This document shows positions 5,409 through 63,763 of a DNA stretch of 64,000 nt, one piece after another. This DNA comes from Hoplostethus atlanticus (Eukaryota > Chordata > Actinopteri > Trachichthyiformes > Trachichthyidae): NCBI GenBank assembly GCA_034670405.1, contig JAXDDX010000295.1, forward strand, positions 186,001-250,000, written 5' to 3'. The notes beneath the pieces were generated by a model. The model was not told the origin of the DNA, searched no databases, and was given only the letters and a program-made list of their open reading frames with translations. Position numbers and translations under genes: made by a program. Position 1 is the first letter of the stretch. The number at the start of each line of letters is the position of its first letter.

Positions 5409-17295
<11,887 letters not shown>

Positions 17296-20800: not shown

Positions 20801-22372
20801 TTGATGGCAAAAAAATGTTTTAATCCATTTTAAATTCAGTCTATAACAAAGTGCGGAAAAAGTCAAGGGGTCTGAATACTTTCCGTATACTGTGGTATCA
20901 CATAATTTCTGTGGTATCACATAGTAGCTTATATAGTTCTAAAATAACTACAGTAAAACAATAAAAGAGTAAAGAACTCAAAGGTGAGATAGGACATCTG
21001 TTTGGCCTAAGACTGACCCAAGAACAGGAGATAATAAAACAATTAAAGGGTCACTCTCCATGTCCCATGGAAGCAGGTGGTTTTATGTGGAGCCATCCAG
21101 AAATGTAATTGACTTATCAAAAAGTTTGCATTGTGCCAGTGGCCCAGACACTTCCTTTTTCCTTTGTATGGTACAGATAACATGGACAGGAATAGATTGG
21201 CAAATGACGTGGAGGGGGAATAATTACAGTTACGTACTTTTGGCTATATAACAAAAACTGGGTGAAAACAAGTGTTGCACTAGGTAGACCTGCTGTGCAT
21301 TGTCGTAGCACTACAGTGTATAATATATGCAGTAGCTCACTTGCTGGCTGTGTAGTGTAGAGCAGAAACTACCAGGGGTCAGCAGTACATGAGACCCAAG
21401 CAATCACAAACAGCCACTAGTGGCTCTGTTATGCTGTGGGGGGCATTTTCCTGGCATGCTTTGGGTCCACTTGTCCCCTTAGAGGGAAGGGTCACTGCAA
21501 ATCAATACAAAGTTATTCTGAATGATCACCTTTGTGCTATGATGAAACATTTCTATCCTGATGGGAGTGGCCTCTTCCAGGATGACCATGCCCCCATCCA
21601 CAGGGCACGAGGGGTAACTGAATGGTTTGATGGGTATGACAATGGTGTGAATCGTGAATCATATGCTATGGTCTTCGCAGTCACCAGATCTCAACCCAAC
21701 TGAACACCTATGGGAGATTTTGGACAGCACTCTCCACCACCATCATCAAAACACCAAATGAGGGAATATCTTTTGGAAGAATGGTGTTCCATCCCTCCAG
21801 TAGAGTTGCAGAAACTTGGAGAATTTATGCCAAGGCACATTGAAGCTCCGGTCTCTTTTAAAAATTAAAAAGGTGGCCATGGCCATGATTATTGGCACCC
21901 TTTAGAACAATTTAAATACATTTTGTTGGAGGAAATAGATTCTCATTTGCAGTCTGTTCTGCTTCCCTGGTTATTTGTGTAAATGGTGAAGAGAAAAGAG
22001 CTGTCTGAGGATGTCAGAAAAACTCAGGCTTAATAGATAAAACATCTATTCTCTCAACTTTAGCTATTATAGGCTTGAATCATGACATAACTGCTTGGGG
22101 CTATACTATTTTGTACTTGCTTTTTTTTAATGTAAATATTGGTTGTACCTCCACTAACAAAAGGCTGATGAAGTGATTACTATAATGTTGTGAATTACCT
22201 GAAATCGGTCAGAAATGTAAAGCCTTTGAAGGGAATCCCTGAAGGTCAGGTTTGTTGGAAACTGGCCAGTGGCTGGACCCAGTTCCTCACTGGCCTCATG
22301 GAGCTCTTCATCTTCCCACTTCGTTGGCTGTCCATCACCCACAGTGGTGAAATACCTCAGGTACCGAGCCAT
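17899..22372 (-). CDS. hvcn1: Voltage-gated proton channel Hv1, complete, 5 coding exons
   Basis: Minus-strand exons: 22372-22199, 20317-20213, 20008-19777, 18407-18295, 17955-17899 (681 nt, 226 aa; human 273). Hv1 is a pore-less four-helix voltage-sensor dimer that extrudes protons, supporting phagocyte NADPH oxidase and sperm pH. S1 (about 59-79) keeps the selectivity aspartate D68 and acidic E75/D79. S2 (about 94-115) keeps E109 and K113. S3 keeps D130. S4 has [10 protein letters not shown] with R161, R164, R167. Residues 171-226 form a leucine-rich coiled coil ending [12 protein letters not shown]. Zinc-site H96 (human H140) is kept, but the position of human H193 is D149. A 3' splice site 11 bp before the ATG (exon begins 22383) implies an upstream non-coding exon that I cannot place. 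The coiled-coil exon donor (CTG|gtgctt) is weak. The shorter N-terminal region is typical of fish. Confidence 0.92.
18830..19215 (+). mobile_element. LINE 3' end in hvcn1 intron
   Basis: CTTTGAGGCTTGTTTGTGAT followed by AAAGGGCTATACAAATAAAC and TTGACTT is a standard non-LTR 3' tail; the preceding 300 bp fits its untranslated region. It is antisense to hvcn1. Confidence 0.65.
20545..20890 (+). mobile_element. Tc1-like transposon 3' end in hvcn1 intron 1
   Basis: GAGTTTGAGAGGATCTGCAA then GAAGAATGGGAGAAACTGCC is the transposase 3' end. It is followed by GCTTTGTCATTATGGGATAT and CAAGGGGTCTGAATACTTTC at the right terminus. The 5' part is missing. Confidence 0.8.
21380..22010 (+). mobile_element. 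Tc1/mariner transposase relics in hvcn1 intron 1
   Basis: Codons from 21420 read [20 protein letters not shown], then [20 protein letters not shown], the middle and second catalytic Asp region of a fish Tc1/mariner transposase; a frameshift follows before the [12 protein letters not shown] box near 21690. From about 21870 the terminus of a different Tc1 family starts (CATGATTATTGGCACCCTTT), also present at 36.5 and 53.0 kb. Both are dead fragments on the strand opposite to hvcn1. Confidence 0.8.
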
Positions 22373-48736: not shown

Positions 48737-49323
48737 CACTATATGACCAAAAGTCAATGGACCCCCCTACTAATTATTGAGTTCAGGTGTTTCAGCCACC
48801 CTGTTTTTCAAGATTTGGGCTTGGCCCCTTAGTCAGTGAAGGGTTCCAGTGAAGGGTAATCTTAATGCTACAGGATACGAAGACATTTTAGCCAATTGGG
48901 CGCTTCCAACTTTGTGGCAACAGTTTGGGGAAGGCCCTTTGCTGTTCCAGCACGACTGTGCCCCTGTGCACAAAGCGAGGTTCATGGTTAGACGAGTTTG
49001 GTGTGGAGGAACTCGATTGGCCTGCACAGAGCCCTGACCTCAACCCCATTGAACACCTTTGGGAGGAATTAGAACGCCGATTGCGAGCCAGGCCTTCTTG
49101 TCCAACATCACTGCCTGACCTCACAAACGCTCTTTTGGCTGAATGGGCACAAATTCCCAGACACACTCCAAAAGCTTGTGGAAAGCCTTCCCAGAAGAGT
49201 GGCGGCTGTTATAGCCTCAAAGGGGAGGTCCAATCCATAATGCCCATGGTTTTAGAATGGGATGTTCAGCAAGCTCATATAGGTGTGATGGTCAGGTGTC
49301 CACTGACTTCTGGCCATATAGCG
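48737..49323 (+). mobile_element. Internally deleted Tc1/mariner element
   Basis: CACTATATGACCAAAAGTCA and the inverted right end CGCTATATGGCCAGAAGTCA form terminal repeats flanked by TA. Inside, codons give PLLFQHDCAPVHKAR and, after a frameshift-like break, PAQSPDLNPIEHLWEELERR, with the second Asp and last acidic residue regions of the transposase. The N-terminal half is missing. Confidence 0.9.
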
Positions 49324-49721
49324 TAGTTGCTACACAGTTACTGTGTTGGATACAATCCATAATCAGCCAGGAAATTAAGAATTTCTACATCAAGGCATGT
49401 CTCTTTATTTCTTACCTCTGTGTAGATGTTTGTTGAAACTTAGAGCTCTTCACAGCCGTCAAAGAGTTGCGTCATTTGTTGAAACTTTCTCATCTTTCAT
49501 GACAATTCAGAGATATTCTGTATGGAATTAAGCACACTCCATTATCAAAGCTCTTACATTTTATCTTGTCTCATGCTTCCACAGATCACCAAGAGGACAC
49601 TGGATGTTTGATGATGAAACTTCACCTCGTTCTTCTGTCATCCTAGAGTATTCCACAAGGGTGGATTGTCCTGGTTTTGAATACATCAGAAGTTAGGAAA
49701 GATTTTGCCAATTCCTATACA

Positions 49722-50354
49722 ATGAGTGCAACCATCTCCCATTCATTTGCAGACCAGCGTCCTGCCTATTTTAGCCATACCAGTGGTCTGACGTGCAGCC
49801 TGTCTCCTTCTAGTGCTTCTATTGGTCACACAGAGGACCATATTCACTGTCACCACCAACAGTCAGGATCAGACTCTCTGGCTAACACAGTGCCCTTCAT
49901 CCTCTACCCTTCCAGCATGGACCCAGCTAGCCTCAGCCTCTACAAAGGCTCGTTCAGGGGCCACAGCCCCGGCCTCCTCCCCTATCTGACCCCTTTCCAC
50001 CATGGACATTTTGGTGTCTATGAGTGTCCTTTTGAGCCGGCGTTCATCCAGAAGCGCAATGAGCGGGAGCGTCAGAGAGTGAAGTGCGTGAACCAGGGCT
50101 ACGCCAAGCTGAGGGACCACCTGCCAGGGCGAACTGGTGACAAGCGCCTCAGCAAAGTGGAAACACTAAGAGCTGCTATTCGTTACATTAAGTATTTGCA
50201 GAGTTTGGTTGAGGGGAAAGGGCAGGCAAGCCACACCCTCAGAGCTGCCACTCATAAATTGGAGGACGCAGGGCACAGTGGTGGAGAGTCACCCAGTTCC
50301 TCCTCCTCTCCAGGTCCAGACTGTGGTGGAGAGTCTGAGGGCTTTGGATGTTAG
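49722..50354 (+). CDS. ascl5: Achaete-scute family bHLH transcription factor 5
   Basis: A single-exon frame of 210 aa from the ATG at 49722; the frame is open further upstream, but no ATG occurs there. A 3' splice site at 49584 suggests an upstream untranslated exon. Residues about 108-165 form a basic helix-loop-helix: QKRNERERQRVKCVNQGYAK, then LRDHLPGRTGDKRLSKVETL and RAAIRYIKYLQSLVE. ERERQRV is the basic region that contacts E-box DNA with an E-protein partner. QKRNERERQRVKCVN and RAAIRYIKYLQ fit ASCL5 better than ASCL4 (RAAIDYIKHLQ) or ASCL1. The next gene, cacna1s, is the neighbour of ASCL5 in human 1q32. A Gln stands where mammals have Glu in VNEGYA. The Ser/Gly/Glu-rich tail is variable. 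ASCL5 acts in tooth and craniofacial epithelium in mammals; its fish role is inferred. Confidence 0.85.
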   Translation: MSATISHSFADQRPAYFSHTSGLTCSLSPSSASIGHTEDHIHCHHQQSGSDSLANTVPFILYPSSMDPASLSLYKGSFRGHSPGLLPYLTPFHHGHFGVYECPFEPAFIQKRNERERQRVKCVNQGYAKLRDHLPGRTGDKRLSKVETLRAAIRYIKYLQSLVEGKGQASHTLRAATHKLEDAGHSGGESPSSSSSPGPDCGGESEGFGC

Positions 50355-51990: not shown

Positions 51991-53231
<1,241 letters not shown>

Positions 53232-55221: not shown

Positions 55222-58200
55222 ATGGCAGACAGCAACAATCCGCCAATGTCATCCTACATTATGGATGAGGAAACGCTGAAGAGGAAGCAAAAGGAGAAGC
55301 TGAAGAAACTAATGGCCACAGGGGGCAACCCTCGGCCAGCACGCTCCCTCTTCTTCTTGACACTAAAGAACCCCTTCCGCAAGGCCTGCATCAACATTGT
55401 GGAGTGGAAGTATCCTTCTAAGGTCAGGGGTCACTGGGCAGAGGCATGGTTGGATCAAACAAATAAGCTAACACTTTATGTCATGGGGCCATAGTTGTTT
55501 TAAGTAGTCAACAAATACTCTTTTATAGTGAATAAATAATGGCAGCAGAGCAGGCAGATATCACAGTTGTACAATGACAACATATTGATATTTTCAATTA
55601 CTCTTCATCATTGTGTTGGGTTTCTGAATAAGATTGTGAGTGTAAATCAATGAAAAAATCAACTGCAACCAAGAATTGTTTACAACACAAAAGAGAAAGT
55701 TTGACTCCATTTAGATACCTGAGTAAATTAGCTTAGCTTTCACATCTATCCTGTTTTGGTAAGGAATAATGACTTTGGCTGCAGTAAGAGCAAACAGTAA
55801 CATCTTCCTAATCCTCTGGATGTGGTGATGGATGATCACAGAGCTGTAAAATAGTTGGTTGAGACAGCTTGATAATATTCCTGGAGATGGACAGCTGTCT
55901 TCCCAGATCACTAGCTAAAAACAGACTTGAAAAGCTAGGAAGAATGCTGCCTCACAACTTGAAAGTTTGAGTCTCAAAGTTGCATTCGTAAAGCAATTAT
56001 CAATTGACCGCTTACAATGGATTTGCCCCTAAATTGATTTAGTACGTTATCATTTGCCGATTTGTACCTTTTGACCTACGAGAATACAATAAATAGGTTG
56101 ACATTATCCAATTACATCTGCTCCACTATTTGGACCTTAAATTTAGTGGTCCTGTTTCAGACACCATTGAAATAGACCCTGTCATGCCATAACAAATCCA
56201 TTGTTGACAGTGGAGATGTCCCTGCTAGCATTCATGTAGTATACAGCAAGGAAATATAATTAACAGAAAAATTAATAGATGTTTTCAAACTCTGAGCATT
56301 GGGATTGATAAAAAAAAAAACTTTGGTTGCTGGTTAATGCCAGATGGTCTTATGACATGTAACAAGTCTAGCTAGCATATTAGCTGTTTGAAGGTACGGT
56401 TCTCTCTTTGTTAGGTAACAGCTGCTGATAAAACATTGTGATTAGTGTGCTGGTATGCACACAATAACTTTTTTTCACCACCAACGCACAGGAGATAAAA
56501 TAACTTGCAGATGTAAAAGTATCTCTTTATAGAATATCACGGTTTAGATAGTCCTTTAATGGTACATCAAACAGAAACCATGCCATGTCTCTGGCTAGCT
56601 TGATCTGTATTAATTGAACACGAACCAAACATAGTCACACGCTGTACACTGAAAATGCTTTTTATATCTATTTGCACTAAATTTATCTCAGTTGAAAATA
56701 AGAATCACAACTACTGCATTAATAGATAGTGTACCAAATGATTGGTGTTGAAAGGTATGGCCGCTGTACACATTATTTGTGGGTTTCATCCCATCCCATT
56801 CAAACACTATAACAATTGTTATGACAGCAACCTTACTGGGTGCTGCAATTACTATAGAACTGCAGTTAGAAGAAGACAGCTCCAACACCACAAACATGCA
56901 CGCACCTACACACAAACGCAAAAACACTCACATGCTCACACACATCCACACATCAACAACCACCTAGTAACAGCTTAGCAACCACTAGTAATCACTTAGC
57001 AACTATCTTGTATAGCAACCACTTGTAATCATCTATCAACCACCTAGTAACAGTGTAGCAACCACTAGTAATCACCTAGCAACAACCTAGAAACAATTAC
57101 TTATTACCTAGCAACCACATAGTACACCCTAGTGCCAAGTAATTTTAGCACAATGTTGAAGCTCTTCCTGCAATAACAGGCAAGACCAAATCTCTCTTCT
57201 TTTTCATTAAAGAAGAAGTAAGGTATAGTAATAATAATACATTAATTTTACTTACATTAATACCAATACATTGAGGGTAGACTTTGGTCTGCATTTTTTT
57301 TCCAGCTGCGCTTCACAATAACATTTGCCTTACTAGGAATTAGCAGCAGAGTGGGACATCATAAGGGACACACAAGATATTTGAGTCAACCAGGCATTGG
57401 TACAATAGTGACTCTGCAGCTAATTAAACTGCTAATTACCTTTACCTTTACCTTTATTACCTTTAATTACCTTCATTACCTAGGGCTCTGATCATTTTTC
57501 AAATTTTACATATGCAAAGAGAAAATATGAGTTTTTTTTTATATTTCTCATGTTCTATTTAGCCTTGCATGGGCTACTGCAATTACTGATATTCTCAATT
57601 AAAGTCACAAGGAAATGGCATTTCGATGGTGTCTTGCTTCCATAATACAACATATTTCTGATTGAATATAGGATGTTGGGCAGGAAATAACATTAGTTAA
57701 AAAGTAAAAAAAATGCTTCAACTGTCACAAATTGTTCTTCAAAATGAGTAAATAAAAGTTGTGAATGTGCAGGTTTTAGGCTAAACAATCTGCGATGGTA
57801 TTATTGGTTGGAATAATTTTATATTTTACAATCATTTTTCCATACATTTTTCTTTATGTATGCCTACTAGTATACCATGAAATAACCACTAAAGATACAC
57901 TGTCCTCCAGGAAGTAAAAGTAAAGGGATTTTGATATAAAAATAAGAGAAAGTAAATATTTTATGTTTTGTTTGTTTATGATATGGAAAACTAGCTAACA
58001 AAGTGAAAAAGTAATTTCTGATTATTATTACACCATAAAAATAAGGCCAAAAATACTGTCACCTTATACCACTAAAGGCCCTAGCATACCTATTATGGTA
58101 GAGGTGACAGGATCCATGGCAGCAAGCAAGCTTCCTATAATTCACTTTCAGACCTTTTGAAATCATCATCCTACTGGCCATCTTCGCCAACTGTGTGGCC

Positions 58201-58745
58201 CTGGCCGTGTACTTGCCCATGCCGGAGGAAGACAGCAACAACACCAACAGTAACTTGGTGAGTCAGCATTCTGACTGTGTGTGTGTGTGTGCATGTACAT
58301 GCATGCATGTGTCTGTGTGTAAATGGACATTGTAAATGAAAACATACACTCATAGGCCGTGTTATAATGATGCTATAGCACAGATTCTAGTTCTTCCAAT
58401 CTCATCAGTAGTTCTTCCAACCTCAGTGTTTACTGAGGTTATACAAGCTGCTCATCAGTTTTGTAGACTGTACTCAGGAGGCCACAACCCAACAGGCCAC
58501 TTTGGTGCCACCACTCGTGGGCCTAGATAGTTGAAATCACTGTCACCAAATGCGGGGATGGATGGATGTCTCACTGGGGCTCTCACTTGGTTATGTATTG
58601 AAATTACTTCCATAGACCCACATGTCAGAACTGATTCTTGAGACTTTTCCATCCTGACAAAAATTATGGGGGCAACACTGAGTCTACAATTTTTTGGTAT
58701 GAAAATATACAAATCTAAAGATATTGATTATCGGCACAAAATATA

Positions 58746-59531: not shown

Positions 59532-62500
59532 GTGAGAGAGTATTCAGTGTTTCCATGAGAATTTGATTCTTGTCAGGGTGTTAAAACTTCTGAAACAGCA
59601 TCAGAATCAATTAAGGTTAAAGGCACAATAAATATGTAATCAATCAAACTGCATCACATTCACCATATCAGAGGTGGACGAAACTGACCGGGCCAGATCC
59701 CATTTTTAATGATTTTAAGTACAATATCAGACCCCAGATCAGTCTAACCTCGCTGAATTCTACTGTCAGTGTGGTGTGTAAATAAAGCAGACAAGTAGAG
59801 AAACCGCTGTCATGTTAGCTGCCCAGAGTTGTTCACTGCATGCCTCTGCTGAAATGAGAGAGGCCATAAAAAACATTCCAAAAGTGTGCGTGTGCGCGTG
59901 CGCGTGTGTGTGTCCGTGTGCGTGTGTGTGTGTGTGAAATAGATAGGGGTGATATGTGGCAGAAAATATGAATGCATTTGTAAATAACAGGAGCAAGAAG
60001 ATGGATGACTTGGCTAGAGGACTAACATAACTCAAGCCATGAAAGAAAATATAGTTATTGTACCAGTGGTGCTATTTTAATTTGAAATTTAACATTTTTT
60101 TAAAATCCCTCTAACACTCACGCTTTTTCACTCAAGAAATAATGCTTGCTTGAAGTACTAACATTTGTGAGTAACACAGATTAAAAAAAACAACTTTTAT
60201 TATCGTTGTCTTACAGGAAAGTCTGGAGTACATCTTCCTCATCATCTTCTCTGTAGAGTGTTTCCTGAAGATTGTAGCGTATGGCTTTCTTTTCCACGCA
60301 GACGCTTACCTAAGAAATTGTTGGAACATACTGGACTTTGTTTGTGTGTCTGTCGGGTAAGTTGTCATGCATGCTGTGGTGTGCCCAATGCAATTGGAAT
60401 TTCAAGATGCAGTCATCTCTGATGCTTTTATTTTGTATTCTGTGAAAATTGTGTTCTGTGGAATTAATTGGTTTGCACTATTTAACTTGATGAGTTATAG
60501 GAGAGCTTAATCAAAGGAATGTAACTAAGCAGATAATGATAATTCTGTAATCACTCTGTTGTGAATCAATTCTCTTGTACTCATACTACTTACTGTGTTG
60601 GCTTCACGTTTTGATATTGAATGTCTGTCTCTTCAGGCTGTTTACCGTGGTTGTGGATGCCATCAATCACATCAGTGGAGTTGAGGCTCCAGTGGGAGAT
60701 AAAGGTGGCGGAGGTTTTGACATGAAAGCCCTGCGAGCATTCAGAGTCCTGCGACCCCTCAGACTGGTCTCTGGAGTCCCCAGTAAGAAACTAGTTATCT
60801 GTGCTCCTTGATCTCCATTTCTGACACAATTGCAATTTGAGGGCCCACCCTACCCAAGATGATGATGAAGATTATTTCCTTTAAATAATTGTTTCCATAT
60901 AGCAATGCCATGCAGTAAAGGTTTAAACCAGTGGCCTCCAACAATGTGACATCCAGAGCCATATGTATACAGGTGTTCCCTCCAACCAAACACTACAGCA
61001 TCCCATTTCACTAATTAACATTACATTACATTACAGTCATTTAGCAGACGCTTTTATCCAAAGCGACTTACAATAAGTGCATTCAACATAGGTAGGCAAG
61101 AAAACTACTAGTCACCAGAAATCGTAAGTGCATTTCCTTCCTAAACAAGCAACTAAGAGCATAACTAGTGTTAAGGTAAGAGTGCAATAAGTTAGCAACC
61201 TACTATATCTTAAACAAATGAGACAAATGAGACAAATAAGAGAATCAAATAACAAGAGCTAAGACAAATAAGTGAACCAAATAAGCAAGAGCTAAGACAA
61301 ATAAGTGTATCAAATGAACAAGAGCCAATAAACAAGAGCTCAGACACATAATTGACGACAAATAGGCAAGGCTAAGAGGAAGAGTCAGGGTAGTGTTTCC
61401 TGAAGAGGTGGGTTTTCAGCCTGCGGCGAAAGATGGGCAGCGACTCTGCTGTCCTGACATCAGTGGGGAGTTCATTCCACCACTGCGGGGCCAGGACAGA
61501 GAAGAGCCGTGACCGTGTAGATCGGCCGCAGGGCCCTCTGAGCGACGGGACAACCAGTCGCCTCGAGGCAGCAGAGCGAAGTGGTCGGGCGGGGGTGTAA
61601 GGCTTGAATTAACACATCTTAACCCATAGTGGATGACCTCATCAGTTAAATTAGGAACCTTTGGAGATGGATAGAGATTTTTGTAAATGTGCTCTGGATG
61701 GCACATGATTGTTGAGCACTGGTTGAAAACCTGTTATCTCAGAGCGTATTTATGAGATTTATTTTGAGATGAATGTTGTTATTCCCCTCCAGGCCTGCAA
61801 GTGGTGATGAACTCCATCCTGAAGTCCATGCTGCCTCTGTTCCACATCACTCTACTGGTCTTCTTCATGGTTACCATCTACTCCATTATGGGTCTGGAGC
61901 TCTTCAAGTGCAAAATGCACAAGACCTGCTACTACAGAGGCACAAGTATGCAGCAACACATGGTCATGTGTGACACTTACGCTGCCAGGGTTACAGTGCA
62001 TTCACATCAAGCACCACCACTTTGCTTTGCACATCACTTCGCTATATCAAAAGTGTTCAGGGGTCAAGCTTCGGAGCAAATTCTCGGTTTGTTTAATGTT
62101 ATTCTTTTAATATTATTTTTATATTTTTGCATGGAAAAAGTAAATTATGCTTTACTCTAGTGAGCTAGCTAAGTGGTTACAACTATTTGGAAGTGATGGG
62201 ATAAGTAGTCTAGCAAGCTAAACATTGCTTGGTTAGCTTACCAGAGCTAAAGTTAGCAGATAAAATATTTTAGGCTAGCAGAGAATTTTAGGACTGCATT
62301 TTTGCCAAAATGTGATTGGTTCTCACTCCACAACCATCCTGTTAATTTATATAATATATATTTTTTAACTCTTCTCATTGCATTGCGGGCCTGGTTCGCA
62401 TTTATTTTAGAGCTAGTTAAGTAGTTACAACTATTTGGAAGTGATGGAATAAGTAGGCTAGCAAGCTAAACATTACTTGGTTAGCGTACCAGGGGTAGTG

Positions 62501-63763
62501 TACCTTGCTTTGTTTCCAGGGCTCTTAATGGACAAGCTGCTGAATGAAGAATGTTTGCAGTGAACAAGAATGAAAATCCGTTCAATGATAGGACAGTTTT
62601 AAATGAAGGAAAAATATAACTCTTGAAATAGAGAAATAGAACAACTGAACTCTTGACCCTATGCTGGGTCAGGTTTTCTTTTAGTTCTGGCAATCTTGCA
62701 GTCACAGGATGAAGTAGAAGTGGGGAGAAAAATGACACATTTGAGGAAACAATACAGTGCAGGTGTAAGGTCAGTCAGAAGAACATTAATAATACAAACA
62801 TCTTTATTGAGCCGCCTAATGTTGAGAGTGTGGACAGTGGTGATGTAGAGATGGATCAGAGAAACAGACAGTGTAGATGGCCTTGTAGTCCACAATGATG
62901 AAGGGTATCTGAGTGAGAAGTGTCTTTTAAATTAGATTTAATGAGTAAAATGTGCTGTCTCTCAAGGGTGGTTGGAGGTATGACCTTTGGTGCCTGTATG
63001 ACCCCAATGGGATGTGGAGAGCTGTGGGAACATAGAACCCTGGGAACACAGATACGCTCCGCTTACCAGAGCTAAAGTTAGCAGCTAAAATATTTTAGGC
63101 TACCAGAGAATTTTAAAACTGCATTTTTGCCAAAATGTGATTGGTTCTCACTCCACGACCATCGTGCTAATTTGCATAATATACATTTTGAACTCTTCTC
63201 ATTGCATCACAAGGCTGCCAGAGAATTTTAGAACTGCATTTCTGCCAAAATGTGATTTGTTCTCACTCCACGACCATTGTGCTCATTTGTATAATATTTT
63301 TTAACTTGCGTCTGGTGTGCAGCTGGGGTCAACTGTCACTGGGGCCACTCATACAAAACTGTACTGTATACACTCATGGAACTGTAAGGTGCTTTGAATA
63401 AAAGGCCTCCAATGACATATGATACACTACAATTATGCACATTAATAAGCACATGCATACAGGGACCTGTGCATCTGTGTGTATACTGTTTGTGTGCACA
63501 TGTATACATATGTATACACACACACCTAACCGTCTTTTTCACTCTGCTGGCCTCAAGACATCATTGCCACAGTGGAGAACGAGAAGCCGGCTCCATGTGC
63601 CCAAGCAGGAAACGGCCGGCGTTGTACCATCAACGGCACTGAATGTCGAGCTGGCTGGCCAGGCCCAAACCATGGCATCACTCACTTTGACAACCTGGGC
63701 TTCTCCATGCTAACTGTCTACCAGTGTATCACCACACAAGGCTGGACCGACGTCCTCTACTGG
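55222..63763 (+). CDS. cacna1s: Cav1.1 (L-type calcium channel alpha-1S), N-terminal six exons, partial
   Basis: Exons: 55222-55409, 58152-58257, 60217-60356, 60637-60782, 61793-61945, 63558-63763, all in phase, giving 313 aa; the gene continues past the window. Cav1.1 is the voltage sensor of the skeletal-muscle triad that gates RyR1. Seen: cytoplasmic N terminus ([14 protein letters not shown]), IS1 ([20 protein letters not shown], residues 64-83), IS2 ([20 protein letters not shown]), IS3 ([18 protein letters not shown]), IS4 ([19 protein letters not shown]) with regularly spaced Arg, IS5 ([20 protein letters not shown]), the disulphide-rich turret ([17 protein letters not shown]) and the pore loop [17 protein letters not shown]. 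Position 305, normally the repeat I filter Glu, is Gln (caa, 63737-63739). Ordinary Cav1.2/1.3 keep Glu. The match to alpha-1S is strongest at the N terminus, and ascl5 next door supports it. Teleosts have two paralogues; the Gln suggests cacna1sa. Confidence 0.93.
55410..58151 (+). other. U12-type GT-AG intron 1 of cacna1s
   Basis: The donor is AA|GTATCCTTCT, the U12 consensus. It joins AA|A to restore Lys before PFEIIIL. A loose branch-site candidate (TTCCTATAA at 58132-58140) lies 12 bases before the acceptor. The intron contains a TAGCAACCAC minisatellite (56940-57130) and a (TTTACC)n tract at about 57437-57470. Confidence 0.75.
56940..57130 (+). repeat. Degenerate minisatellite in cacna1s intron 1
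   Basis: Repeated variants of TAGCAACCACTAGTAATCAC. Confidence 0.8.
58746..58784 (+). repeat. (TCTA)n microsatellite
   Basis: Nine to ten TCTA units in cacna1s intron 2. Confidence 0.95.
59266..59530 (+). repeat. (CA)n, (GT)n and (GA)n microsatellites
   Basis: CA-rich tract at 59266-59323, GT tract at 59450-59475 and GA tract at about 59476-59530, all in cacna1s intron 2. Another GT/GC tract lies at 59885-59936. Confidence 0.9.
59560..59770 (+). repeat. Dispersed repeat, copy 2
   Basis: Shares ordered words with 8010-8240, including CAGAGGTGGACGAAACTGAC followed by CGGGCCAGATCCC. In cacna1s intron 2. Confidence 0.7.
61016..61640 (-). mobile_element. LINE 3' terminal fragment with open C-terminal frame
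   Basis: On the minus strand the codons read [20 protein letters not shown] ... [20 protein letters not shown], then [20 protein letters not shown] and a stop, the C-terminal end of a fish non-LTR ORF2. The 3' untranslated region ends in GTAAGTCGCTTTGGATAAAA, then GCGTCTGCTAAATGAC and TGTAATGTAATGTAA. The open frame and clean tail suggest a fairly young insertion into cacna1s intron 4, antisense to the gene. Confidence 0.85.
62160..63305 (+). repeat. Local repeats in cacna1s intron 5
   Basis: The unit TACCAGAGCTAAAGTTAGCA followed by AGAGAATTTTAGGACTGCAT and CCAAAATGTGATTGGTTCTC occurs at 62238-62345, again at 63063-63170 and partly at 63212-63300. A second unit (GGTTACAACTATTTGGAAGT ...) occurs at 62170-62240 and 62413-62490. 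Confidence 0.8.

What the first reader, a model, noticed from the sequence alone, without database searches (positions are those of the whole stretch)
63737..63739. Repeat I selectivity-filter Glu of Cav1.1 is Gln
The pore loop reads [13 protein letters not shown] where mammalian Cav1.1 has [13 protein letters not shown]; the changed residue is the repeat I member of the EEEE calcium filter. It is known that teleost skeletal-muscle Cav1.1 channels do not conduct calcium and act only as voltage sensors, with pore changes in each paralogue; from memory, the repeat I E-to-Q change belongs to the slow-muscle isoform (alpha-1S-a). The splice sites and frame around the codon are clean, so this looks like a fixed functional change.
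Basis: partly seen in the sequence, partly recalled or inferred. Interest (0 to 1): 0.8.

Follow-up and report, generated by a model that had tools for sequence, protein, structure and literature searches.

The report
Fish muscle calcium channel, altered filter
A fish skeletal-muscle calcium channel gene carries a change in its calcium filter that is already known from zebrafish slow muscle, where the channel senses voltage but does not pass calcium; its sister gene in the same fish unexpectedly lacks the published blocking changes.

Summary
Window 63737-63739 is CAA (Gln) in an intact exon of a skeletal-muscle L-type channel gene (CACNA1S/Cav1.1), aligned with Glu292, the repeat I member of the EEEE filter. 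Of 13 clear Cav1/Cav2 repeat I pore exons found in this fish genome, the other 12 have Glu, all GAG, so a one-base error is unlikely. Downstream of the window the gene keeps Glu in repeats II-IV (QEEE) and Asn617.

This is a known trait: eLife 2021 (PMC8184209) reports E-to-Q in repeat I for the zebrafish slow-muscle isoform, and E292Q abolished inward calcium current in a rabbit clone. The finding is another example of a known kind.

Unexpected is the second cacna1s gene (contig C27). It has EEEE, Asn617 and Asp296-to-Glu, so it carries neither published block of the fast-muscle isoform (N617D, or Thr617 with Lys296). Hox clusters suggest a clupeocephalan, probably a non-salmonid euteleost. 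By the published rules this gene should still conduct calcium, or be silenced another way. That is untested and rests on one unnamed assembly.

The parts
55222..55409 (+). cacna1s exon 1, coding part with the start codon
   Evidence: open frame and donor GT; query residues 17 on align to solved Cav1.1
58152..58257 (+). cacna1s exon 2
   Evidence: AG/GT borders, open frame; Cav1.1 match
60217..60356 (+). cacna1s exon 3
   Evidence: AG/GT borders, open frame; Cav1.1 match
60637..60782 (+). cacna1s exon 4, with the repeat I S4 voltage sensor ([18 protein letters not shown])
   Evidence: AG/GT borders, open frame; the quoted stretch is identical in the mammalian chain
61793..61945 (+). cacna1s exon 5 (repeat I S5 region)
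   Evidence: AG/GT borders, open frame; Cav1.1 match
63558..63763 (+). cacna1s exon 6, with the repeat I pore loop
   Evidence: AG/GT borders, open frame; phmmer best E 4.9e-28, Cav1.1
63737..63739 (+). codon CAA (Gln) at the repeat I filter position, Glu292 in mammals
63749..63751 (+). codon GAC (Asp) at position 296, kept

Best explanation
The window gene is a teleost cacna1s whose channel has a QEEE filter. By signature it is the counterpart of zebrafish slow-muscle alpha-1S-a. Gln at position 292 removes one of the four carboxylates that bind calcium in the pore, so calcium no longer passes. The voltage sensors and the II-III loop are kept, so the protein most likely still senses depolarisation and opens the ryanodine receptor by contact. 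Shown here: the Gln codon, the intact exons read, Glu in repeats II-IV, and kept S4 helices and II-III loop stretches. Inferred from published work on zebrafish and rabbit clones: loss of calcium current, the voltage-sensor role and slow-muscle use.
For: Codon and frame. Alignment to the filter Glu. Best solved match is Cav1.1 (1080.5 bits) over Cav1.3 (1040.5) and Cav1.2 (1032.5). Repeats II TGEDWN, III TFEGWP and IV TGEAWHE. 12 of 13 clear repeat I exons in the genome have Glu. S4 stretches of repeats I and II against the mammalian chain; S4 of all four repeats and II-III loop stretches against the fish paralogue. Literature: PMC8184209 section 12 states that the zebrafish slow-muscle isoform has E-to-Q in repeat I and that rabbit E292Q lost inward calcium current.
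Against: No expression or current data for this species. The same section cites only a twofold change in IC50 for the equivalent change in the cardiac channel, so complete silence is not guaranteed by the residue alone. The original 2010 PNAS paper was not held and not read.
Confidence: 0.86

Rival explanations
1. The QEEE channel is not silent but leaks: it lost calcium selectivity and passes monovalent ions in the working fibre.
For: PMC8184209 reports a slight outward Cs current for rabbit E292Q and expects that calcium block of monovalent flux is abolished.
Against: The published zebrafish slow-muscle channel is described as calcium non-conducting; no sequence feature seen here separates the two readings.
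Confidence: 0.2
2. The Gln codon is a sequencing or assembly error, or a rare allele.
For: One assembly only; no reads.
Against: CAA is two changes from the GAG used by the 12 other clear repeat I exons in this genome, and the same residue change is published for zebrafish.
Confidence: 0.03
3. The gene is decaying and the Gln is a neutral change in a pseudogene.
For: The filter is damaged.
Against: Open frames and splice sites in exons 1-6. Further exons into the C-terminal part align to the paralogue without stops in the aligned stretches. In repeats I-II, 440 of 606 residues are identical to the mammalian chain, the same count as for the sister gene, 440 of 603.
Confidence: 0.02
4. The gene is not the orthologue of zebrafish alpha-1S-a; the same change arose separately on the other duplicate.
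For: Only the signature residue links it to alpha-1S-a; I had no zebrafish sequence, and the two fish genes are equally far from the mammalian chain.
Against: One change at the same residue in one of two teleost duplicates is most simply explained by descent.
Confidence: 0.12

Closest known systems
Zebrafish slow-muscle DHPR alpha-1S-a (Schredelseker et al. 2010, as described in PMC8184209)
   Same: Gln in place of the repeat I filter Glu; one of two teleost cacna1s duplicates.
   Different: Another, unnamed fish; no current or expression measured here.
Zebrafish fast-muscle DHPR alpha-1S-b (N617D)
   Same: Same gene family, second duplicate.
   Different: The window gene keeps Asn617, and so does the second gene of this genome on C27, which is the unexpected part.
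Mammalian Cav1.1 (PDB 6jpa, 5gjv and others)
   Same: Same architecture, 440 of 606 residues identical in repeats I-II; Glu in repeats II-IV.
   Different: Mammals have EEEE and pass calcium.

Membership tests
Cav1.1 (CACNA1S) L-type channel alpha-1 subunit | closest solved relative is Cav1.1 rather than Cav1.2 or Cav1.3 | tested here: met
   1080.5 bits against 1032.5 and 1040.5, repeats I-II
Cav1.1 (CACNA1S) L-type channel alpha-1 subunit | four ion-transport repeats with S4 sensors and pore loops | tested here: met
   four pore loops read; S4 stretches of all four repeats in the aligned exons
Cav1.1 (CACNA1S) L-type channel alpha-1 subunit | skeletal-type II-III loop used for contact coupling | tested here: inconclusive
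   stretches DEFESNVNE, DPFPPADFPG and SPRPRPMADLQLKEEAVP shared by both fish genes; that this is the critical skeletal stretch is recalled, it was not aligned to a mammalian sequence here
Non-conducting teleost slow-muscle DHPR (alpha-1S-a type) | Gln at the repeat I filter position, other three Glu kept | tested here: met
   that the zebrafish isoform keeps the other three Glu is read from 'QEEE locus' in PMC8184209
Non-conducting teleost slow-muscle DHPR (alpha-1S-a type) | expressed in slow muscle | not testable with these tools
   no transcript data
Non-conducting teleost slow-muscle DHPR (alpha-1S-a type) | no inward calcium current | not testable with these tools
   needs electrophysiology
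Non-conducting teleost fast-muscle DHPR (alpha-1S-b type), considered for the C27 gene | Asp at 617, or Thr617 together with Lys296 | tested here: not met
   C27 gene has Asn617 (AAC) and Glu296 (GAA)

The most novel reading that the evidence does not exclude
This fish, probably a euteleost, silenced only one of its two muscle calcium channels. Its second cacna1s gene, presumably in the place of the fast-muscle isoform, has an intact EEEE filter, Asn617 and a conservative Asp-to-Glu change at 296, so fast muscle may still have, or have regained, a calcium current. This would break the published statement that all euteleosts have non-conducting muscle channels. If the second gene is silent instead, it is silenced by an undescribed route.
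Probability: 0.35. Interest if true: 0.6.

Novelty: new member of a known kind. Interest (0 to 1): 0.35.

Why it matters
The Gln is a natural copy of a laboratory mutation (E292Q) and adds a further fish to a trait that PMC8184209 describes for the zebrafish slow-muscle isoform. The more useful lead is the sister gene. A euteleost whose second muscle channel keeps a normal-looking filter would show whether loss of calcium current is really universal in teleost fast muscle, and whether the two duplicates lost it at different times.

Tried and rejected
Sequencing error was considered and judged unlikely: two changes from GAG, and the same residue change is published.

Hidden third cacna1s copy: the repeat I search found 13 clear Cav1/Cav2 exons, and only two of them (C295, C27) carry the Cav1.1-like THFDN..F.MLTVYQ stretch and the two highest identities to the mammalian Cav1.1 exon, 45 and 43 of 52 (the next is 41 of 52). 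A search with the repeat II pore exon did not complete, so a fragment that lacks repeat I is not excluded.

Species identification: I read 12S, COI and cytochrome b of the assembly's mitochondrial contig and searched papers for six strings from them: 0 papers. I could not name the fish. Placement rests on Hox clusters only. That search scored 150 of 168 candidates, so a missing hoxcb is not proven.

An automatic gene model for the downstream exons failed; exact borders beyond exon 6 were not set. Pfam on seven window ORFs gave one hit, a helix-loop-helix gene.

Papers not held, so not read: Schredelseker 2010 and Schrotter 2017. What I say of them comes from PMC8184209, PMC5589907 and recall.

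Full report
Observation. The window is bases 186001-250000 of contig C295 in a 632.8-Mb genome of 1161 contigs. Codon 63737-63739 is CAA. Six exons (55222-55409, 58152-58257, 60217-60356, 60637-60782, 61793-61945, 63558-63763) join with GT-AG borders into a 313-residue open frame, and the codon is number 305. The pore exon aligns with solved Cav1.1 (best chain E 4.9e-28; residues 264-300 in chains 6jpa and 5gjv, rabbit as I recall). At the position of the filter Glu the fish has Gln; the residue before it is Thr instead of Met.

Chance and error. I searched the whole genome with this pore exon: 20 matches listed, 13 at E <= 8.9e-11 and 7 at E >= 0.1. I read all 13 strong ones and none of the 7 weak ones. 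Twelve of 13 have Glu, each spelled GAG; the window gene alone has Gln, CAA. Two base changes separate the codons, so a single miscall is a poor explanation.

Rest of the gene. I fetched C295:250001-290000. Repeat II reads TGEDWNTVMY (Glu at C295:256615-256617, Asn617 at 256624-256626), repeat III TFEGWP (Glu at 264125-264127), repeat IV TGEAWHEVML (Glu at 271530-271532). The filter is QEEE. Position 296 is Asp. The S4 stretch of repeat I is identical to the mammalian chain and that of repeat II nearly so. S4 of repeats III and IV and the II-III loop stretches are present and agree with the fish paralogue. The best solved relative of repeats I-II is Cav1.1: 1080.5 bits, against 1040.5 for Cav1.3 and 1032.5 for Cav1.2.

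What is known. PMC8184209 section 12 (read in full; [quoted passage not shown] The fast-muscle isoform is blocked by N617D. From the order Lophiiformes on it is instead blocked by Lys296, with Thr at 617. PMC5589907 (passages) states that zebrafish and all other euteleosts express non-conducting channels.

The sister gene. A second cacna1s lies on C27 within 2080001-2100000. Its best solved relative is again Cav1.1: 1147.6 bits against 1091.2 for Cav1.2 and 1070.0 for Cav1.3, repeats I-II. In the region compared the two fish genes are 487 of 609 identical to each other, and 440 of 606 (window gene) and 440 of 603 (C27 gene) identical to the mammalian chain, as expected of teleost duplicates. 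Its pores read I TMEGWTEVLYW, II TGEDWNTIMY, III TFEGWPQ, IV TGEAWQEIML. So it has EEEE, Asn617 (C27:2089965-2089967) and Glu296 (2088060-2088062). It has neither published block. Glu296 is unlikely to be a block by itself: of the six exons that I read by motif as Cav2, two have Glu there, two Asp, one Thr and one Ala. None of the five other Cav1 exons has Glu there: all five have Asp, so the change is unusual within Cav1.

Which fish. A Hox9 homeodomain search listed 70 matches, with 150 of 168 candidates scored. I grouped 48 of the 70 by contig and order into seven clusters (C27, C30, C225, C61, C6, C16, C86); the other 22 lie scattered on other contigs and were not examined. I read homeobox exons of three of the seven contigs (C61, C86, and part of C30). 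C86 shows four genes, as PMC4166920 reports for clupeocephalan hoxbb. C61 shows group 11, 9 and 4 genes, which I read as hoxdb. I saw no hoxcb cluster. PMC4166920 (passages) says zebrafish and salmon lost hoxdb and percomorphs lost hoxcb. This points to a clupeocephalan that is neither zebrafish-like nor salmonid, probably a euteleost. The cluster names are my reading, Clupeiformes were not excluded, and the species is unknown.

Meaning. For the window gene the best reading is ordinary: a voltage sensor for muscle contraction that has lost its calcium conductance by a known change. For the sister gene, the published rules predict a conducting pore or an undescribed silencing. The 2010 paper that surveyed teleosts was not readable here, so such a case may already be in it. 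Paper searches that could have shown one: 15 of 20 listed; 17 of 17; 4 of 4; 10 of 14; 12 of 53. No listed title concerns a teleost with a conducting muscle channel. I opened only the papers named above plus PMC6328546, PMC9851209, PMC12604801 and PMC12021243 (passages).

Limits. One assembly, no reads, no transcripts, no currents. Exon borders beyond exon 6 were not set exactly. Part of the repeat III S6 exon of the C27 gene reads N.

Noticed in passing
L025-L026 = C27:2080001-2100000: Second cacna1s gene with EEEE, Asn617 and Glu296: neither published block of the teleost fast-muscle isoform is present.
   Followed up: partly
window 49647-50354 (+): Helix-loop-helix gene (Pfam HLH, 4.1e-19), achaete-scute-like as I recall the family, just upstream of cacna1s; recalled mammalian neighbour order is CACNA1S-ASCL5-TMEM9. 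A TMEM9-like reading frame lies before the C27 copy (L039 about 8841; identity recalled).
   Followed up: partly
L019 345-1536 (C140, Cav1-type channel, repeat I pore exon): A tandem array of a 76-base unit, 15.9 copies at 94% matches, overlaps the end of the pore exon, and many units carry copies of the coding end [12 protein letters not shown] followed by the same intron-side letters, so the true splice donor sits among near copies.
   Followed up: partly
C295:267486-267548 and C27:2096198-2096260: Both cacna1s genes have a peptide LASSGGLYCLHGC near the repeat IV S3-S4 linker that I recall as exon-29-like; in mammals loss of exon 29 gives a larger calcium current (PMC9851209, passages).
   Followed up: no
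window 9474-9806 (+), 21356-21703 (+), 48892-49326 (+), 52192-52527 (-): Reading frames that resemble Tc1-type transposase pieces (resemblance recalled, not searched).
   Followed up: no
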